Positions 1 through 24,877 are shown, counted from the stretch's first letter. The stretch is DNA of 30,353 nt from a virus (IMGVR_UViG_3300032163_001982:1-30353), one strand, 5' to 3'. A program made the numbers and translations. The notes: generated from the sequence alone by a model not told the origin.

Positions 1-1446
1 TCATGTTTCCTTGCGTTCTCTGCTCCATGTGAGGTAGACTTTGGTCTGCGCTAGGAAACTCAGCCGTTTCAACACGGCGGCGAGGTCGTCGATGCGGAGC
101 GTGGCGAGCTTCTGGACGAAGTCTTCGTGTGTGGGATATGCTTGACTGAGGGAGAGCAGCCGTTTTCTCAGTGAGGATTGTCTTCTGGAGAGGTTCTCGA
201 GCGCGGCGAGCACTTCTGGCGTGGCGGCGTGTTGGAGGACCCGAGCGTTGTGGGCGGTTGATCCTAGCATGTGCAGGTCGAATCCCGCTTGCTGTAGCTG
301 GCTGAGGGCGTCTTGCACGTGTCTGCTTGGGGTGCTTTCGGCCACGCGTTGCATTCCTGCCTTCTCGAAGAAGGGGTTGTACTTTGCCATGACGGCCAGC
401 GTCTCCACGTGGGGGGTGCCGGCGAGCGGGAGAGTTTCGCGGACGAGTTTTGCGCCTAGTCCTATGGTGCGGTATTTTGGGTGGATGATTATTCTTGATA
501 TGGTGCTGAAGTTTTTTTGCAGTTGGCTGAGTGTTCCCTGCCACGTTTTGTTTCGGCCGAACGTGACTGGTGGCGAGTAGCTGTAGACGATTGCGCCGCA
601 GAGTTCGTCGTTGCGTTTGAGCGTGAATATTGCGCGTGGGGGAGGGCATCGTTTGGACCTGTAGTGGAGGTGGCTCAGTTTCTTGTAATGTTCCGTTGTG
701 CCTTTTTCTATGCGCATTTCTTTGGTGAGGCTGCACTCGCTTTTGGCGGCGTTCTGCTGATAGTTCACGGTGATTTCTTGGCCGAAGCGTTTGTGGACGT
801 GGACGCTTGGGTTGAAGTCTTCGAGGAGGTCCGCGTGCGTGGTGGCTGCTATGACTGCTTTGCCTGCTTGTCTTGCGAGTTTTTGCACGTTGAAGGCCAC
901 GATCTTGGCCGTGTCGCGGTCGAGCAGTGAGCAGAACTCGTCGATCATCCACCACTGCTTTTTTGTTTCGGCCAGTTTGGCGAGTCGGTACCGGTATTTT
1001 TGTCCGTCGCTGAGTTCTCGGTAGCGTCTGAGGAAGAGGAAGGCGTCGTTTAGGCCTACTTTGCTGAGCAACTCGATGGCTTCGTTGAGTGTGGCGCCGA
1101 GGGTTTCGACTATGGGCTTGTCCTGTTCTATTGTGAGGTCTGCCACGTCGGCCGCGTGCGGGTGGAGGTCGCTTTCTATGGCTTTTAGGAGGACGCTTTT
1201 GCCTGATCCGCTGTCGCCGGTTATGAGGACGACGTCGGTTGGGCCTATTTTGAGCTGGATGTTGTCGTACAGGGTGAATTTTTGTGTTTCGTCTATGCCT
1301 AGGCCGAAGGCTTCTGCCACCGCGAGCGTTCGTGGGGTGGGGTCGGTGGCGGTTTCGTAGGCTATGCTGAAGGTGAACTTGCCTGTTCCTCGGTCGTAGC
1401 GTTTGCGGAGTTTGTTGATGTGGAAGTGTTCGTGTCTTTGTTTCAT
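1..1446 (-). CDS. ABC-type ATPase fused to GNAT acetyltransferase (COG2401-like)
   Basis: 481-residue fusion of an ABC-class ATPase and a GNAT-type acetyltransferase, the architecture of COG2401. Visible motifs: Walker A GDSGSGKS (about residues 77-84), signature-like LSDGQ (145-149), Walker B WWMIDE (165-170), and an H-loop in TTHADL (202-207). The GNAT part follows, with RIIIHPKYRTIGLGAKLV (about 318-334) carrying the R-x-x-G-x-G acetyl-CoA loop. The C-terminal ~110 residues are helical and unassigned. The frame is open upstream to 1713, but the ATG at 1446 overlaps the terminase stop (ATGA), so I start there; the upstream extension is Arg/Pro-rich shadow sequence. Being last in the terminase block suggests a role tied to packaging or to modifying viral DNA or protein; the acetyl acceptor is unknown. 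The stop codon is the first three bases of the window. Confidence 0.85.
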   Translation of the reverse strand: MKQRHEHFHINKLRKRYDRGTGKFTFSIAYETATDPTPRTLAVAEAFGLGIDETQKFTLYDNIQLKIGPTDVVLITGDSGSGKSVLLKAIESDLHPHAADVADLTIEQDKPIVETLGATLNEAIELLSKVGLNDAFLFLRRYRELSDGQKYRYRLAKLAETKKQWWMIDEFCSLLDRDTAKIVAFNVQKLARQAGKAVIAATTHADLLEDFNPSVHVHKRFGQEITVNYQQNAAKSECSLTKEMRIEKGTTEHYKKLSHLHYRSKRCPPPRAIFTLKRNDELCGAIVYSYSPPVTFGRNKTWQGTLSQLQKNFSTISRIIIHPKYRTIGLGAKLVRETLPLAGTPHVETLAVMAKYNPFFEKAGMQRVAESTPSRHVQDALSQLQQAGFDLHMLGSTAHNARVLQHAATPEVLAALENLSRRQSSLRKRLLSLSQAYPTHEDFVQKLATLRIDDLAAVLKRLSFLAQTKVYLTWSRERKET

Positions 1447-4367
1447 CTTGTTACGCCTGTTGCTTGGTGCTTTCTGGCTGTGTCGAGTTTTGTTTTTGCC
1501 TTGTCTGCTCGTCTGGCGATCCAGAGTTTTGGGGCTGGTTCGGTGCGGGTTGCGTAGCAGGCGAGTGCCAGTGCCCAGAAACGGTCGTCGTGGGTGTTTT
1601 CGGGGTGGTTGAGTTTCAGTTTTCCGTCTTTTGCGAGTTCGAAGCGTTCGGTGTTGAGTTCGGATATGAGGTCGCTGTCGTAGGGGATTTTCAGTTTGTT
1701 TTCTATCATGCACTGTTTTAGGTGGGTGGCCATTTTCTCCTTTGTTTCTTGGGTGAATTTTGCGCCTTCAGTTTCGGCTATGCCCGTGTTTGTCATGTCT
1801 TCGGTGACGTAGTCTCCGACTCCGCTGACGTCGACCAGGATTTTGTGTATGGTTTGCCAGCGGTCGCGTATGGTTTTCACGTAGCCGATTACGCTTGCAT
1901 AGGATGTTTGGAGCGGAAAAGTGCGGAGGTGGACGAGTTTTGCTGTTGTGTCTTCGGTTTCGAGGATGGCGAGCACGCTGTGGTCTTGGTGTTTGCCTAG
2001 ATCAAGTCCGGCAAAGAACGAGCCCTTGGGGTTTTCTTCGAAGCCGGTGTATTCGAGCGTGTGGTCTATGCAGCTTGTTATAAGTGCTTGTGGGAGCCAT
2101 GCGTTTTCGTTTTCGGCCCATTCGGCTTCCATTTCTCGTTTCCAGCGGCAGGGGTCGCCTTCGAGCTGTCTGCGTATGCGTTCGATGATTTGTTGCTTGA
2201 GCGGGCCGTTGGGTTCGAGGGCTTGTTGCCATGTGACGTGGCTTTTGGCGTAGTCGGCGTACGCGGCGTCGTGGAAGATTTTGTGGAAGGTGCTGTCGGT
2301 GCTCCATGGGGTGCTGGTGCAGACGAATTTGCCGTTTGTCGTGCCGAGTGTGAAGAGTATTGCGTCGTACATTTCGGCGTCGTTTGGAATGAAGTTGAAC
2401 TCATCACAGTTGGAGACTAAGATGCCATCTGCAAAGAAATTGTGGTTGCCCTCAACTTCTAGGTTGTAGACAATTTCATTTTGCTCTTTTTTCTGAAATA
2501 GTGCTGTCTTTCCCGACATTCTACACTGCAATATTTCTGTCTTGCTAACGGAGGATGAAAAACGCTGCCGCAATGCATGCAATGCTTTGGATATGAAGGG
2601 ATTTTCCAGTATTTTCTGTGTCTTTCTTTGCGGCATTTTGCGCTGCAGATTCTCTGGTGCCCATTTCTGGGAATGAACGGGCTGTCGCATTGTAAACATT
2701 GTCGTGGCAATAACGGTTTCTTGTTCTCCAGTCTCCGAAGTCTTTTTTGTTGAATTTTCCATGTCCTCCGACAAGTGGACGAACACGTTTTTGTTTTGTC
2801 TTGTGTCGGTACGAAGATCCTTCCACAGGATGCGCAGGCTCTTGGCTGTTTTGGTTGCCAATTTTTGTTTAATTTTGCCAAGAGTTTCTTGCATTTCGGA
2901 TCTGAGCAAACAACTTTCTTTTTCGCTGAGAGGACTGCTCTCTTGGGAAGAACTGGCTTGCCGCATATTATGCAGGGGACTGGCTTCAGTTCCGGCAAGA
3001 TTTTGTATTGCATGGGAGGTATGACCTGTGATCTGATTAGATCGAAGAATAAGTCTCTGTCCTTTGCTAAGAGCCGCAAAAAGTATCCTCTGTCTCTCGA
3101 GTCTTTCGCTATTTTTGAGTCTATTTTCCAACGATTTTTCAGCCATTGTTGAAGAAGCAGATTTTCCTGTTTGGAGAATCTGTGAGTGCTGAATTGAACT
3201 GCCGATTTTGAAAGACTTCCATCGTCCATGTACCATGTTGCCAATGCTAGTGGAGAGTCGATTTTTTCGAGCCATTCGGACGAAATTGTTTTTCGCCCAT
3301 CTGGATAGCATATGCGATAGATCTGTGTGAATGATGGATGTGACAGAGTGCTGAATCTTATTAGTTGTTTTCCCCAGCCTTTGTTTGGGCATAGTTTGGG
3401 TGGTTTTCTTACGAGATTTGCTAGAATTGAATATTTGAATTGAACGTATTCTGCTTGTTTTGAGGAGTGGCTTATGACGACGTGGACGTTTCTTTTCTCG
3501 TTTTTTGGTTTTGGTATGCATAGGTCGCCTAAGAGCCCGCCATAAATTAGTTGTTTTTGAATTTCTGTCAGTTTCAGCTTGTAGTGTGGCTTTATTTTTG
3601 GCACCTGTTTCGTGATTTGGTGTGCCTGCAAGATATAAGATTTGATCGTTAATGGTGAGCTGAGAAGCTGGAACGTATCCTCTCTTCAACGTGAAAATCT
3701 TGTGTTCAGCTGTGCAGTCGAGATGCCCGAATGAATGGAAAACGCGAACAATGTTTCGATCATCAAGCGGATTTGGAAAGATTCTCAAGACTTTTTTTGG
3801 TTCAACTTGTCTTGTGAGTGGATTATATGAGAGAACGTGCTGACCTGCGTTTAGTCTGCTTATTGGAATTCCATTTCCGTCTGGTAGAACAATGTTTACG
3901 TGGCGGGGTAGGCAATATACAATATGTAGTGTTGGGCCTCGTATTGTTTCGGGGTTGTTTGGGTATGCTTCTATTGTGCTGTTGTTTGTGAGGGTGACTG
4001 TTGTTCTTTGTGGTTTCTGGTACGTGCCTTTTGGGAGTTTGTGGAGGAGGCCGTTTACGCGTTTGATGATGAGTTTTGTTTGTCGCCAGCTTGGGCCGAC
4101 GATGGCCGTGTTCGTGTTTGGGTTTGTAAGAGCGTAATGCAGTAGCAGTGCGGAGATGGTGTGGCTTTTGCCTGTTTGTCTTGCCCATCGTGCGGCGACG
4201 AACTGGTTTTGCTGAAAAAGCTGCATCAGGTGCTTCTGGTAGTCTGTGGGGGTGAAGCCGAGTGTTGTTTGGCAGAATTCTGCTGGGTCGGCTGGGAAGG
4301 TGGTGGTTTGGGTTTCAGCTAGTTTCTGCTGGAGCTTGTTGAGTTTTGTTTTTTGCCGCGGCTTCAT
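1443..4367 (-). CDS. terL: terminase large subunit precursor, interrupted by an intein
   Basis: DNA-packaging motor ATPase/nuclease. The 974-residue ORF comprises 472 extein residues plus a 502-residue intein. N-terminal ATPase: Walker A-like ARQTGKSHT (about 62-70) and a Walker B strand LHIVY-CDEF that is split by the intein between Tyr151 and the following CDE. C-terminal RNase H-fold nuclease: acidic motifs in FFAGLDLGK, KILVDVSGVGD and NTHDDRFWAL. The spliced length of 472 residues is normal for the family. The ATG at 4367 has GGAG about 10 nt upstream and overlaps the preceding small gene by about 50 nt; the stop overlaps the next gene's ATG. Packaging needs intein splicing because the catalytic Walker B carboxylates lie immediately after the insertion. 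Confidence 0.93.
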   Translation of the reverse strand: MKPRQKTKLNKLQQKLAETQTTTFPADPAEFCQTTLGFTPTDYQKHLMQLFQQNQFVAARWARQTGKSHTISALLLHYALTNPNTNTAIVGPSWRQTKLIIKRVNGLLHKLPKGTYQKPQRTTVTLTNNSTIEAYPNNPETIRGPTLHIVYCLPRHVNIVLPDGNGIPISRLNAGQHVLSYNPLTRQVEPKKVLRIFPNPLDDRNIVRVFHSFGHLDCTAEHKIFTLKRGYVPASQLTINDQILYLAGTPNHETGAKNKATLQAETDRNSKTTNLWRALRRPMHTKTKKREKKRPRRHKPLLKTSRIRSIQIFNSSKSRKKTTQTMPKQRLGKTTNKIQHSVTSIIHTDLSHMLSRWAKNNFVRMARKNRLSTSIGNMVHGRWKSFKIGSSIQHSQILQTGKSASSTMAEKSLENRLKNSERLERQRILFAALSKGQRLILRSNQITGHTSHAIQNLAGTEASPLHNMRQASSSQESSPLSEKESCLLRSEMQETLGKIKQKLATKTAKSLRILWKDLRTDTRQNKNVFVHLSEDMENSTKKTSETGEQETVIATTMFTMRQPVHSQKWAPENLQRKMPQRKTQKILENPFISKALHALRQRFSSSVSKTEILQCRMSGKTALFQKKEQNEIVYNLEVEGNHNFFADGILVSNCDEFNFIPNDAEMYDAILFTLGTTNGKFVCTSTPWSTDSTFHKIFHDAAYADYAKSHVTWQQALEPNGPLKQQIIERIRRQLEGDPCRWKREMEAEWAENENAWLPQALITSCIDHTLEYTGFEENPKGSFFAGLDLGKHQDHSVLAILETEDTTAKLVHLRTFPLQTSYASVIGYVKTIRDRWQTIHKILVDVSGVGDYVTEDMTNTGIAETEGAKFTQETKEKMATHLKQCMIENKLKIPYDSDLISELNTERFELAKDGKLKLNHPENTHDDRFWALALACYATRTEPAPKLWIARRADKAKTKLDTARKHQATGVTR
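2459..3631 (-). CDS. LAGLIDADG homing endonuclease with four zinc fingers, out of frame inside the intein
   Basis: 390-residue endonuclease read one nucleotide forward of the intein frame. LAGLIDADG motif 1 is IYGGLLGDLCI (about 29-39) and motif 2 is LALATWYMDDGS (about 128-139), the pattern of intron/intein-type LAGLIDADG enzymes, which cut the empty allele to spread the element. The C-terminus carries four CxxC...CxxxxC or CxxC...CxxxC modules (C220-C247, C266-C287, C312-C333, C351-C372), probably zinc-binding DNA-contact fingers. The first available start is TTG at 3631, or GTG at 3604; neither has a Shine-Dalgarno site, and the frame is closed by TGA at 3686-3688. Expression may therefore need frameshifting from the intein frame. 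Alternatively, paired indels made an originally in-frame domain look out of frame. Confidence 0.85.
   Translation of the reverse strand: MQAHQITKQVPKIKPHYKLKLTEIQKQLIYGGLLGDLCIPKPKNEKRNVHVVISHSSKQAEYVQFKYSILANLVRKPPKLCPNKGWGKQLIRFSTLSHPSFTQIYRICYPDGRKTISSEWLEKIDSPLALATWYMDDGSLSKSAVQFSTHRFSKQENLLLQQWLKNRWKIDSKIAKDSRDRGYFLRLLAKDRDLFFDLIRSQVIPPMQYKILPELKPVPCIICGKPVLPKRAVLSAKKKVVCSDPKCKKLLAKLNKNWQPKQPRACASCGRIFVPTQDKTKTCSSTCRRTWKIQQKRLRRLENKKPLLPRQCLQCDSPFIPRNGHQRICSAKCRKERHRKYWKIPSYPKHCMHCGSVFHPPLARQKYCSVECRERQHYFRKKSKMKLSTT
2486..2492 (-). promoter_or_regulatory. A_AAA_AAG -1 frameshift heptamer at endonuclease/intein junction
   Basis: On the minus strand the endonuclease frame reads AGA AAA AAG AGC, an exact X_XXY_YYZ heptamer in the endonuclease zero frame. 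A -1 slip continues as GAG CAA AAT GAA ATT, which is the intein C-terminal splicing frame (EQNEIVYNLEV). The endonuclease frame ends nine codons later at the TAG at 2459. The site is thus exactly where a translating ribosome could pass from endonuclease to splicing domain. A homopolymer sequencing error would look the same. Confidence 0.5.
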
Positions 4368-23941: not shown

Positions 23942-24877
23942 TCAAAGACTTCTGCTATGGGAAGGAACCAAACGCCTTTTCAGCAACCGGGCTCCGGTGA
24001 GTTTCTTGGCACAGAGCACAAGAGCAAGACTTGGCAAAATGACCAGTGAGACTGCCAGCAAAGATGGAAACTCCGGAACCATCTGCGCAAGCCAGAACGT
24101 GTGAAGCACGTCCGCAATCACGTTAACCGCCAAATTGAGCGATTCTCCACAACGATCCTCAAACGTCTGGCTGCCCCAGTCGTAGTTTTGGTTCATCCAG
24201 ACGCAGGTCAAGTCCCCGTCCACGTCAAAAGTCGTGTCGTAGGCAATGGCAAGAGCAGCGTCCCGCGCGGTCACGTTCTCCAAGCGGCCGTCGAAGGTGA
24301 GGAAGAGGCTGAACTCGTCATCGTACTGATCCGTTCTGTTGTTCACGTAGGTCTCGTAGCCGCTGTGGTGCTGGTCATCTTCGGCTCCCCAAGCGGTTTC
24401 TGCTCCCATCACGTGACCGAACACGGCAACATCAGCAATGTAATGGCACATTGCTCCAAGTCTCCTGCACACAGCGCCAACGTCGCCAGAAAGCACGGCG
24501 ACAGCCGCGTTTTCGTATTCCTGCTGCGCTCTAGCTCCAGCCGCATCGTCTTTCAGAGCCCCGTCTGAAAAGTAGTAGACGTGGTGTTTCGGCCTGTCGT
24601 TCATTCCGTCAGGCGGCTGGCTGCTGTCAGGCAGCTCGGTGCCCAAGAGGAAGGACGCGAGATTGTCGAGGATGAACTGCTTCTCCTGCTGCGGAAGCCA
24701 GTCCAGAGCGTGCTGCGCTACCCAATCGTGAGTGCCGTACTTCGGGGTGGATGGGTCGGTGCTGAAGCCCCCGTTGCTCCAGCATGAAGCCGGTAAGGCG
24801 TTGCTCAACAAAGCTGCGTTAACAAGCAAAAGTGTGACTAGCGCGAGAGGCACTGTGTTGCTCAAAACGCTCCCCAC
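23942..24877 (-). CDS. secreted zinc-dependent phospholipase C-like enzyme with PEF-CTERM-like tail
   Basis: 311 residues: signal peptide (about 1-32), then a zinc phospholipase C/S1-P1-type helical fold. CWSNGG holds the near-N-terminal Trp of the mature protein; metal ligands are suggested by H50/H56, H98/H99, H145-x3-D149-x5-H155 (CHYIADVAVFGH) and H171-x3-E175 (HHSGYE), closely matching the ligand spacing of Bacillus cereus PLC. The C-terminus reads VPEFPS, a membrane helix and basic residues, like the PEF-CTERM signal cut by archaeosortases. The GTG at 24877 lies 27 nt from a TATA box, implying a leaderless message. It would act outside the membrane, on phospholipids or another phosphodiester, perhaps in entry, exit or exclusion of other viruses. 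Confidence 0.8.
   Translation of the reverse strand: MGSVLSNTVPLALVTLLLVNAALLSNALPASCWSNGGFSTDPSTPKYGTHDWVAQHALDWLPQQEKQFILDNLASFLLGTELPDSSQPPDGMNDRPKHHVYYFSDGALKDDAAGARAQQEYENAAVAVLSGDVGAVCRRLGAMCHYIADVAVFGHVMGAETAWGAEDDQHHSGYETYVNNRTDQYDDEFSLFLTFDGRLENVTARDAALAIAYDTTFDVDGDLTCVWMNQNYDWGSQTFEDRCGESLNLAVNVIADVLHTFWLAQMVPEFPSLLAVSLVILPSLALVLCAKKLTGARLLKRRLVPSHSRSL

What the first reader, a model, noticed from the sequence alone, without database searches (positions are those of the whole stretch)
2409..3914. Homing endonuclease encoded out of frame inside a continuously open intein
Splicing blocks A, B, F and G are in the terminase frame. The LAGLIDADG endonuclease (both catalytic motifs and four zinc fingers) is in a different frame over the middle ~1.17 kb. 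The terminase/intein frame nevertheless has no stop across it. In about 385 shadow codons there is not one TAN codon (no Tyr either) and seven TGN codons with no TGA. Either the overlap is selected so that both a splicing-competent precursor and an endonuclease can be made, or two indels displaced an in-frame domain and the codon bias against T|A junctions happens to leave the shadow open. I know of no described intein with this arrangement.
Basis: partly seen in the sequence, partly recalled or inferred. Interest (0 to 1): 0.9.

Follow-up and report, generated by a model that had tools for sequence, protein, structure and literature searches.

The report
Intein with homing endonuclease out-of-frame
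A virus of Bathyarchaeia carries, inside its DNA-packaging gene, a self-splicing protein insert whose DNA-cutting enzyme is written in a different reading frame over the same bases; relatives and even an unrelated cultivated phage show the same layout, so it is a real and repeatedly evolved way of packing two genes into one mobile element.

Summary
In detail: TerL (974 aa, minus strand) contains a 502-aa intein (2409-3914). Its splicing motifs are in the TerL frame, while an intact I-SceI-like LAGLIDADG endonuclease (HEN) with four zinc modules lies at TerL frame +1 (2459-3604). The TerL frame has no stop across it. It is neither a sequencing error nor chance. Three divergent TerL inteins (HEN 59-69% identical) have the same layout, with 0, 0 and 1 host-frame stops where permuting synonymous codons gives 16-18 (window 0 vs 14). 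Three inteins in a second gene, a viral helicase, also have 0 (14-17 expected). Xanthomonas phage FoX3 gp40 has the mirror layout in the other frame. None of 67 control HENs has an open second frame. HEN synonymous sites evolve freely except that stops are avoided, so openness is selected, not the linker sequence. A 141-aa mini-intein, sporadic distribution and a co-conversion-like tract support splicing and homing. Best reading: the full-length precursor splices out the intein with its nonsense linker, and HEN starts at its own internal codon. I found no described intein like this in the held literature; the closest is the non-splicing ShiLan element. New variant of a known kind.

The parts
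1443..4367 (-). terL: terminase large subunit precursor including the intein (974 aa, one open frame)
   Evidence: ORF; Pfam Terminase_6N 1.5e-11, Intein_splicing 1.5e-9; PHROG terminase large subunit for the C half
3915..4367 (-). TerL N-extein (151 aa), ends ...TLHIVY just before motif II
   Evidence: 76 viral and 36 Bathyarchaeia loci have N half directly joined to C half here
2409..3914 (-). whole intein, 502 aa in the TerL frame
   Evidence: Pfam PF14890 40.8 bits for this stretch alone; alignment with empty sites
3621..3914 (-). splicing half with blocks A and B (C1; TAEH), about residues 1-98
   Evidence: alignment with seven other inteins and a 141-aa mini-intein; C1 and TxxH invariant
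2481..3620 (-). stop-free 'shadow' linker in the TerL frame (about 380 aa), no recognisable domain
   Evidence: 0 stops; low-confidence AF2 (pLDDT 22-39, 3-sequence alignment); sequence not conserved beyond what HEN imposes plus openness
2409..2480 (-). splicing half with blocks F and G (VYNLEVEGNHNFFADGILVSN), +1 Cys follows
   Evidence: alignment; Pfam match to profile end
1443..2408 (-). TerL C-extein (321 aa, starts CDEFNFIP = motif II, nuclease domain)
2459..3604 (-). homing endonuclease gene in TerL frame +1, from GTG 3604 (381 aa) to stop 2459
   Evidence: LAGLIDADG_2 3.6e-38; start codon at the homologous place in relatives (ATG, TTG, ATG); AF2 pLDDT 91.2; Foldseek I-WcaI / I-SceI, TM 0.78 by target
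3521..3550 (-). first LAGLIDADG motif, LIYGGLLGDL
   Evidence: Gly-Asp invariant in 18 relatives
3218..3247 (-). second LAGLIDADG motif, ALATWYMDDG
   Evidence: Asp-Asp-Gly invariant in 18 relatives
2462..2974 (-). four treble-clef-like zinc modules at the HEN C terminus
   Evidence: CxxC...CxxxC x4 in the alignment; Pfam DUF2116 'probable treble clef' (weak, below cut-off)

Best explanation
This is a mobile intein whose homing endonuclease gene is nested in an alternate reading frame. Ribosomes starting at the TerL start codon read straight through and make a 974-aa precursor: TerL-N, IntN (blocks A, B), a roughly 380-aa linker with no sequence requirement except no stops, IntC (blocks F, G), TerL-C. 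The intein splices in cis and restores terminase. From the same mRNA, ribosomes also start internally (GTG 3604 here; ATG or TTG at the same place in relatives) at frame +1 and make a free I-SceI-like endonuclease with a zinc-module array. That enzyme would cut intein-less terL genes at motif II so that repair copies in the whole element. Shown: the anatomy, intact HEN, intact splicing residues, selection for an open host frame, sporadic distribution, and a co-conversion-like tract. Inferred: splicing, internal initiation, and DNA cleavage in vivo.
For: Same layout in divergent relatives: L002, L003 (and its near-identical L004) and L005 in TerL. Same layout and same frame offset in a second host gene, an SF2 helicase intein at motif II (L096/L097, L098, L099; HEN 36-41% identical to the window's). 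Host-frame stops observed/expected: window 0/14.4, L002 0/18.3, L003 1/15.7, L005 0/16.8, L096 0/16.8, L098 0/13.9, L099 0/16.0. 67 control LAGLIDADG_2 HENs show none with an open second frame, median ratio 1.0. HEN frame evolves as a protein gene (position 3 > 1 > 2) while its 4-fold sites are about as diverged as the extein's, so only openness is selected. Splicing residues C1, TxxH, terminal N and +1 C/S are intact in all eight nested inteins, and a 141-aa HEN-less mini-intein sits at the same TerL site in a Bathyarchaeota genome. HEN-frame stops lie 1-9 codons upstream of the start in five of seven loci, and the helicase group has SD-like sequence there, favouring independent starts. Mobility: the 4 intein-bearing TerLs fall in 4 separate places on the tree, L005 being 96% identical to empty L027; divergence between L005 and L027 is 30/180 next to the site against 29/840 further away, while 17 empty pairs reach at most 1.6-fold. 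Independent case: isolated phage FoX3 gp40 has the same nesting in the other frame, with empty near-identical siblings.
Against: No expression data. No Shine-Dalgarno-like signal before the HEN start in the TerL group. The penultimate intein residue is Ser, not the usual His, in all four TerL inteins and the mini-intein. L003/L004 has one TGA in the host frame, so that copy cannot make the full precursor without readthrough or trans-splicing. AF2 of the 502-aa intein is uninformative (pLDDT 33, three sequences). The near-site window in the co-conversion test was chosen after seeing the profile. With the window's own TerL codon usage the open frame alone is only P = 0.014.
Confidence: 0.82

Rival explanations
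1. Two sequencing or assembly indels displaced a normally in-frame HEN.
For: The record is a single metagenomic contig.
Against: Independent contigs at 59-69% and 36-41% HEN identity have the same frame; the isolated phage FoX3 shows an analogous case.
Confidence: 0.01
2. Codon or dinucleotide bias leaves the second frame open by luck; no selection.
For: The window's own TerL avoids T-ending codons; with that usage 4.1 stops are expected and 0 has P = 0.014.
Against: Relatives with T-rich usage still have 0 or 1 stops where 14-25 are expected; T-ending codons are common in the same HEN genes except exactly where they would make a stop; 67 control HENs show no deficit.
Confidence: 0.03
3. Programmed frameshifts into and out of the HEN frame make a conventional intein with a built-in HEN.
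For: HEN sits exactly between blocks B and F where conventional HEN domains sit; L005 has a CCC-C run just before the HEN start.
Against: Would not need an open host frame, which is the strongest signal; HEN-frame stops lie within a few codons upstream of the start in most loci; slippery sites are not shared.
Confidence: 0.04
4. The element works as a split intein: N and C parts are made separately and splice in trans, the open frame being incidental.
For: Pectobacterium phages Amona, Ymer and Abuela have exactly this at a helicase motif II: IntN and IntC in one frame separated by 12-13 stops, with the HEN between and a ribosome-site-like sequence before IntC. L003/L004 has one host-frame stop.
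Against: In the split case stops are at the chance level (12 vs 12.1); in the nested cases they are absent, so the full-length product matters.
Confidence: 0.05
5. The HEN region is removed as RNA by a self-splicing intron inside the intein.
For: HEN genes often sit in group I introns.
Against: No Rfam match in the window even at E 1, nor at gathering thresholds in seven relatives; an intron would not require the open frame.
Confidence: 0.02

Closest known systems
Canonical inteins with an in-frame LAGLIDADG endonuclease (e.g. PI-SceI; viral examples here L101, L103)
   Same: Splicing blocks A, B, F, G; endonuclease between B and F; insertion in a conserved motif of an essential ATPase
   Different: Endonuclease is part of the intein polypeptide in one frame; here it is a separate protein in another frame and the intein carries a stop-free nonsense linker instead
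ShiLan element: out-of-frame HNH endonuclease in a mycobacteriophage methylase (PMC11855218)
   Same: Insert open in the host frame, endonuclease in another frame, internal GTG start proposed, sporadic distribution
   Different: No splicing domains, so the insert is thought to stay in the protein; HNH not LAGLIDADG; here a splicing domain is present and the host gene is essential
Split inteins interrupted by a free-standing endonuclease ('fractured genes', Dassa et al. 2009, cited in PMC10448857; Pectobacterium phages Amona/Ymer/Abuela here)
   Same: Endonuclease gene lies between the two splicing halves and has its own start
   Different: There the host frame is closed and the halves are separate proteins; here it is kept open
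I-SceI / I-WcaI family (LAGLIDADG_2) homing endonucleases
   Same: Fold (TM 0.78), two motifs with catalytic acids
   Different: Extra C-terminal array of four zinc modules; encoded in an intein out of frame rather than in a group I intron

Membership tests
Intein (protein-splicing element) | HINT splicing domain with blocks A, B, F, G in the host frame | tested here: met
   PF14890 40.8 bits over cut-off 35.8 for 2409-3914; C1, TAEH, block F and terminal Asn aligned
Intein (protein-splicing element) | +1 Cys/Ser/Thr and precise insertion in a conserved host motif with empty-site relatives | tested here: met
   +1 Cys; 76 viral and 36 genomic empty sites at the same joint
Intein (protein-splicing element) | Penultimate His in block G (usual, not universal) | tested here: not met
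   VSN in the TerL group; VHN in helicase inteins and FoX3
Intein (protein-splicing element) | Actual protein splicing | not testable with these tools
   needs expression and mass spectrometry
Canonical intein with nested endonuclease domain | Endonuclease in the same frame as the splicing domain | tested here: not met
   HEN in TerL frame +1
LAGLIDADG_2 homing endonuclease | Two LAGLIDADG motifs with catalytic acids and I-SceI-like fold | tested here: met
   PF03161 131.6 bits; invariant GD and DDG; AF2 plus Foldseek
LAGLIDADG_2 homing endonuclease | Cuts the intein-less allele | not testable with these tools
   indirect only: co-conversion-like tract
Split intein / fractured gene | Host frame interrupted between the two halves, C half with own start | tested here: not met
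   0 stops in the window's host frame; met in Pectobacterium phages
ShiLan-type out-of-frame insertion | No splicing domain in the host frame | tested here: not met
   splicing domain present
Group I/II intron with ORF | Intron RNA structure around the HEN | tested here: not met
   no Rfam match

The most novel reading that the evidence does not exclude
Alternate-frame nesting is a distinct, recurrently evolved class of mobile intein (two frame offsets; TerL and two kinds of helicase; archaeal-virus and bacteriophage hosts), in which the splicing precursor contains a long nonsense linker kept only stop-free. It may be the evolutionary bridge between canonical inteins and split, 'fractured' ones: L003 with a single stop and the Pectobacterium phages with many would be later stages.
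Probability: 0.5. Interest if true: 0.9.

Novelty: new variant of a known kind. Interest (0 to 1): 0.82.

Why it matters
Inteins are described as single polypeptides in which the endonuclease domain is nested in frame. Here the two functions are separate proteins written over the same bases, with the clearest signature of dual coding one can ask for: stops purged from one frame while the rest of that frame drifts. It suggests that an intein can carry hundreds of arbitrary residues at its endonuclease insertion point, shows how an endonuclease can be freed from splicing without breaking the host gene, offers a route to split inteins, and warns that annotation hides such endonucleases inside 'helicase' or 'terminase' genes. 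FoX3 and its empty siblings make homing directly testable.

Tried and rejected
Sequencing error, codon-bias luck, frameshifting, RNA intron and split-intein readings were tested as above. A genome-contig scan with the HEN alignment found nothing; the TerL scan gave only Bathyarchaeia. AF2 of the whole intein was uninformative. A Shine-Dalgarno search before the HEN starts was negative for the TerL group. Recoding of TGA in L003 could not be judged: its HEN and TerL stops are TAG and TAA. FoX3/FoX2 mismatches show no clear co-conversion pattern. Plasmid search gave only weak LAGLIDADG relatives. Literature: ten searches found no intein with an out-of-frame endonuclease; the preprint 10.1101/2025.01.02.630785 on actinobacteriophage inteins with 'non-canonical architecture' and Gorbalenya 1998 'Non-canonical inteins' are not held and were not read.

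Full report
What is there. The minus-strand ORF 4367..1443 (974 aa) is a terminase large subunit interrupted by an intein. The intein is 3914..2409: extein ...TLHIVY, then C1, and ...VSN502 before the +1 Cys of CDEFNF. Pfam's Intein_splicing model matches 2409-3914 at 40.8 bits over a cut-off of 35.8. Between blocks B and F, in TerL frame +1, lies a 381-aa endonuclease (GTG 3604 to stop 2459): LAGLIDADG_2 at 131.6 bits, AF2 pLDDT 91.2, best structural matches I-WcaI and I-SceI at TM 0.78, and four CxxC...CxxxC modules. The TerL frame has no stop in 389 codons, the other sense frame 22.

It is not an error. A viral-contig scan gave three divergent TerL inteins with the same layout: L002 (HEN 69% identical), L003 with its near-identical L004 (62%), and L005 (59%). 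In all, the HEN is TerL frame +1. L002 and L005 are open end to end (993 and 926 aa); L003/L004 has a single TGA.

It is not luck. Permuting synonymous codons within each HEN predicts 14-18 host-frame stops; observed are 0, 0, 1, 0. T-ending codons are common in these genes (28-38%) but almost absent before AA, AG or GA, the only places where they would create a host-frame stop (0/85, 0/73, 1/75, 0/70). Among 67 other LAGLIDADG_2 endonucleases, in frame or free-standing, none has a stop-free second frame and the observed/expected ratio centres on 1. The window alone would be weak if its terL codon usage were the yardstick (4.1 expected, P = 0.014), which is why the relatives matter.

What is selected. 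Pairwise codon comparison shows HEN under protein-level constraint (change at position 3 > 1 > 2), while its four-fold sites are about as diverged as those of the TerL extein. The host-frame linker is therefore not conserved as a protein; it is only kept open. That is what a splicing precursor needs and what frameshifting or RNA-splicing models do not. No intron RNA is found.

The layout recurs. A scan with the HEN alignment found the same +1 nesting in inteins of a viral SF2 helicase at motif II, DE|C..N|C/S H (L096/L097, L098, L099; 0 stops vs 14-17 expected), where the HEN start is preceded by SD-like sequence. Among isolates, Xanthomonas phage FoX3 gp40 (annotated 'putative DNA helicase') holds an intein (43.1 bits) with a LAGLIDADG endonuclease in the other alternative frame (0 stops vs 3.3, P = 0.007). 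The different offset implies a separate origin. FoX2, FoX5, Murka, FoX1 and M29 have the empty helicase at 97-99% identity. Pectobacterium phages Amona, Ymer and Abuela show the contrasting state at an equivalent motif-II site: 12-13 host-frame stops, separate IntN and IntC ORFs, HEN between. Their stop count is at the chance level.

Splicing and homing, indirect evidence. C1, TxxH, terminal Asn and a +1 Cys/Ser are kept in all eight nested inteins, and a Bathyarchaeota genome has a 141-aa HEN-less mini-intein at the same TerL site. The penultimate residue is Ser in the TerL group, an unusual but shared feature. Among 80 TerLs the four intein carriers lie in four separate places. L005 and the empty L027 differ at 30 of 180 bases beside the site against 29 of 840 elsewhere (Fisher 1.7e-9), a 4.8-fold excess not approached by 17 empty pairs (maximum 1.6); this is what co-conversion during homing leaves, though the near window was picked after looking. 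All 42 genomic TerL relatives are in Bathyarchaeia, so that is the likely host.

Known or new. [quoted passage not shown] Endonuclease domains within inteins are described as nested at one conserved site (PMC6801210). I found no intein with the endonuclease in another frame, but a preprint on actinobacteriophage inteins cited by the ShiLan paper could not be read. I therefore call it a new variant of a known kind, with high interest.

Open points. Translation of both frames, splicing and cleavage are not shown. How the host frame became stop-free is unknown: an in-frame HEN shifted by two indels, or a split state that later regained an open frame, are both possible. L003's single TGA could be a decaying or a splitting allele.

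Noticed in passing
L003:3359-3361 (also L004): Single TGA in the otherwise open host frame of one TerL intein, present in two metagenomes (99.98% identical contigs); possible first step to a split intein or a decaying allele.
   Followed up: partly
L248:2408-2830: 141-aa HEN-less mini-intein at the same TerL site in Bathyarchaeota MAG palsa_986; possibly a useful small archaeal intein.
   Followed up: partly
L172 (Xanthomonas phage FoX3, MT161383 26902-29268): gp40 is an unannotated intein-containing helicase with a hidden out-of-frame LAGLIDADG gene; RefSeq labels it 'head morphogenesis'.
   Followed up: yes
L207-L209 (Pectobacterium phages Amona, Ymer, Abuela): Helicase split at motif II into IntN and IntC ORFs with a LAGLIDADG gene between; annotated as unrelated hypothetical protein, homing endonuclease and helicase, but looks like a natural split intein.
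   Followed up: partly
L176 (Vibrio phage 1.245.O): terL ORF ends in an intein N half; an HNH/zinc-module ORF and a separate 'hint' ORF ending in a block G-like VVHN|C follow. Probably another fractured terminase intein.
   Followed up: no
1..1713 (-): ABC-type ATPase fused to a GNAT acetyltransferase next to terL, also beside terL in L002 and L253; function unknown, apparently a constant neighbour in these Bathyarchaeia viruses.
   Followed up: no
23942..24877 (-): Protein ending in a PEFPS... hydrophobic tail like archaeal surface proteins; L003 has a similar one.
   Followed up: no
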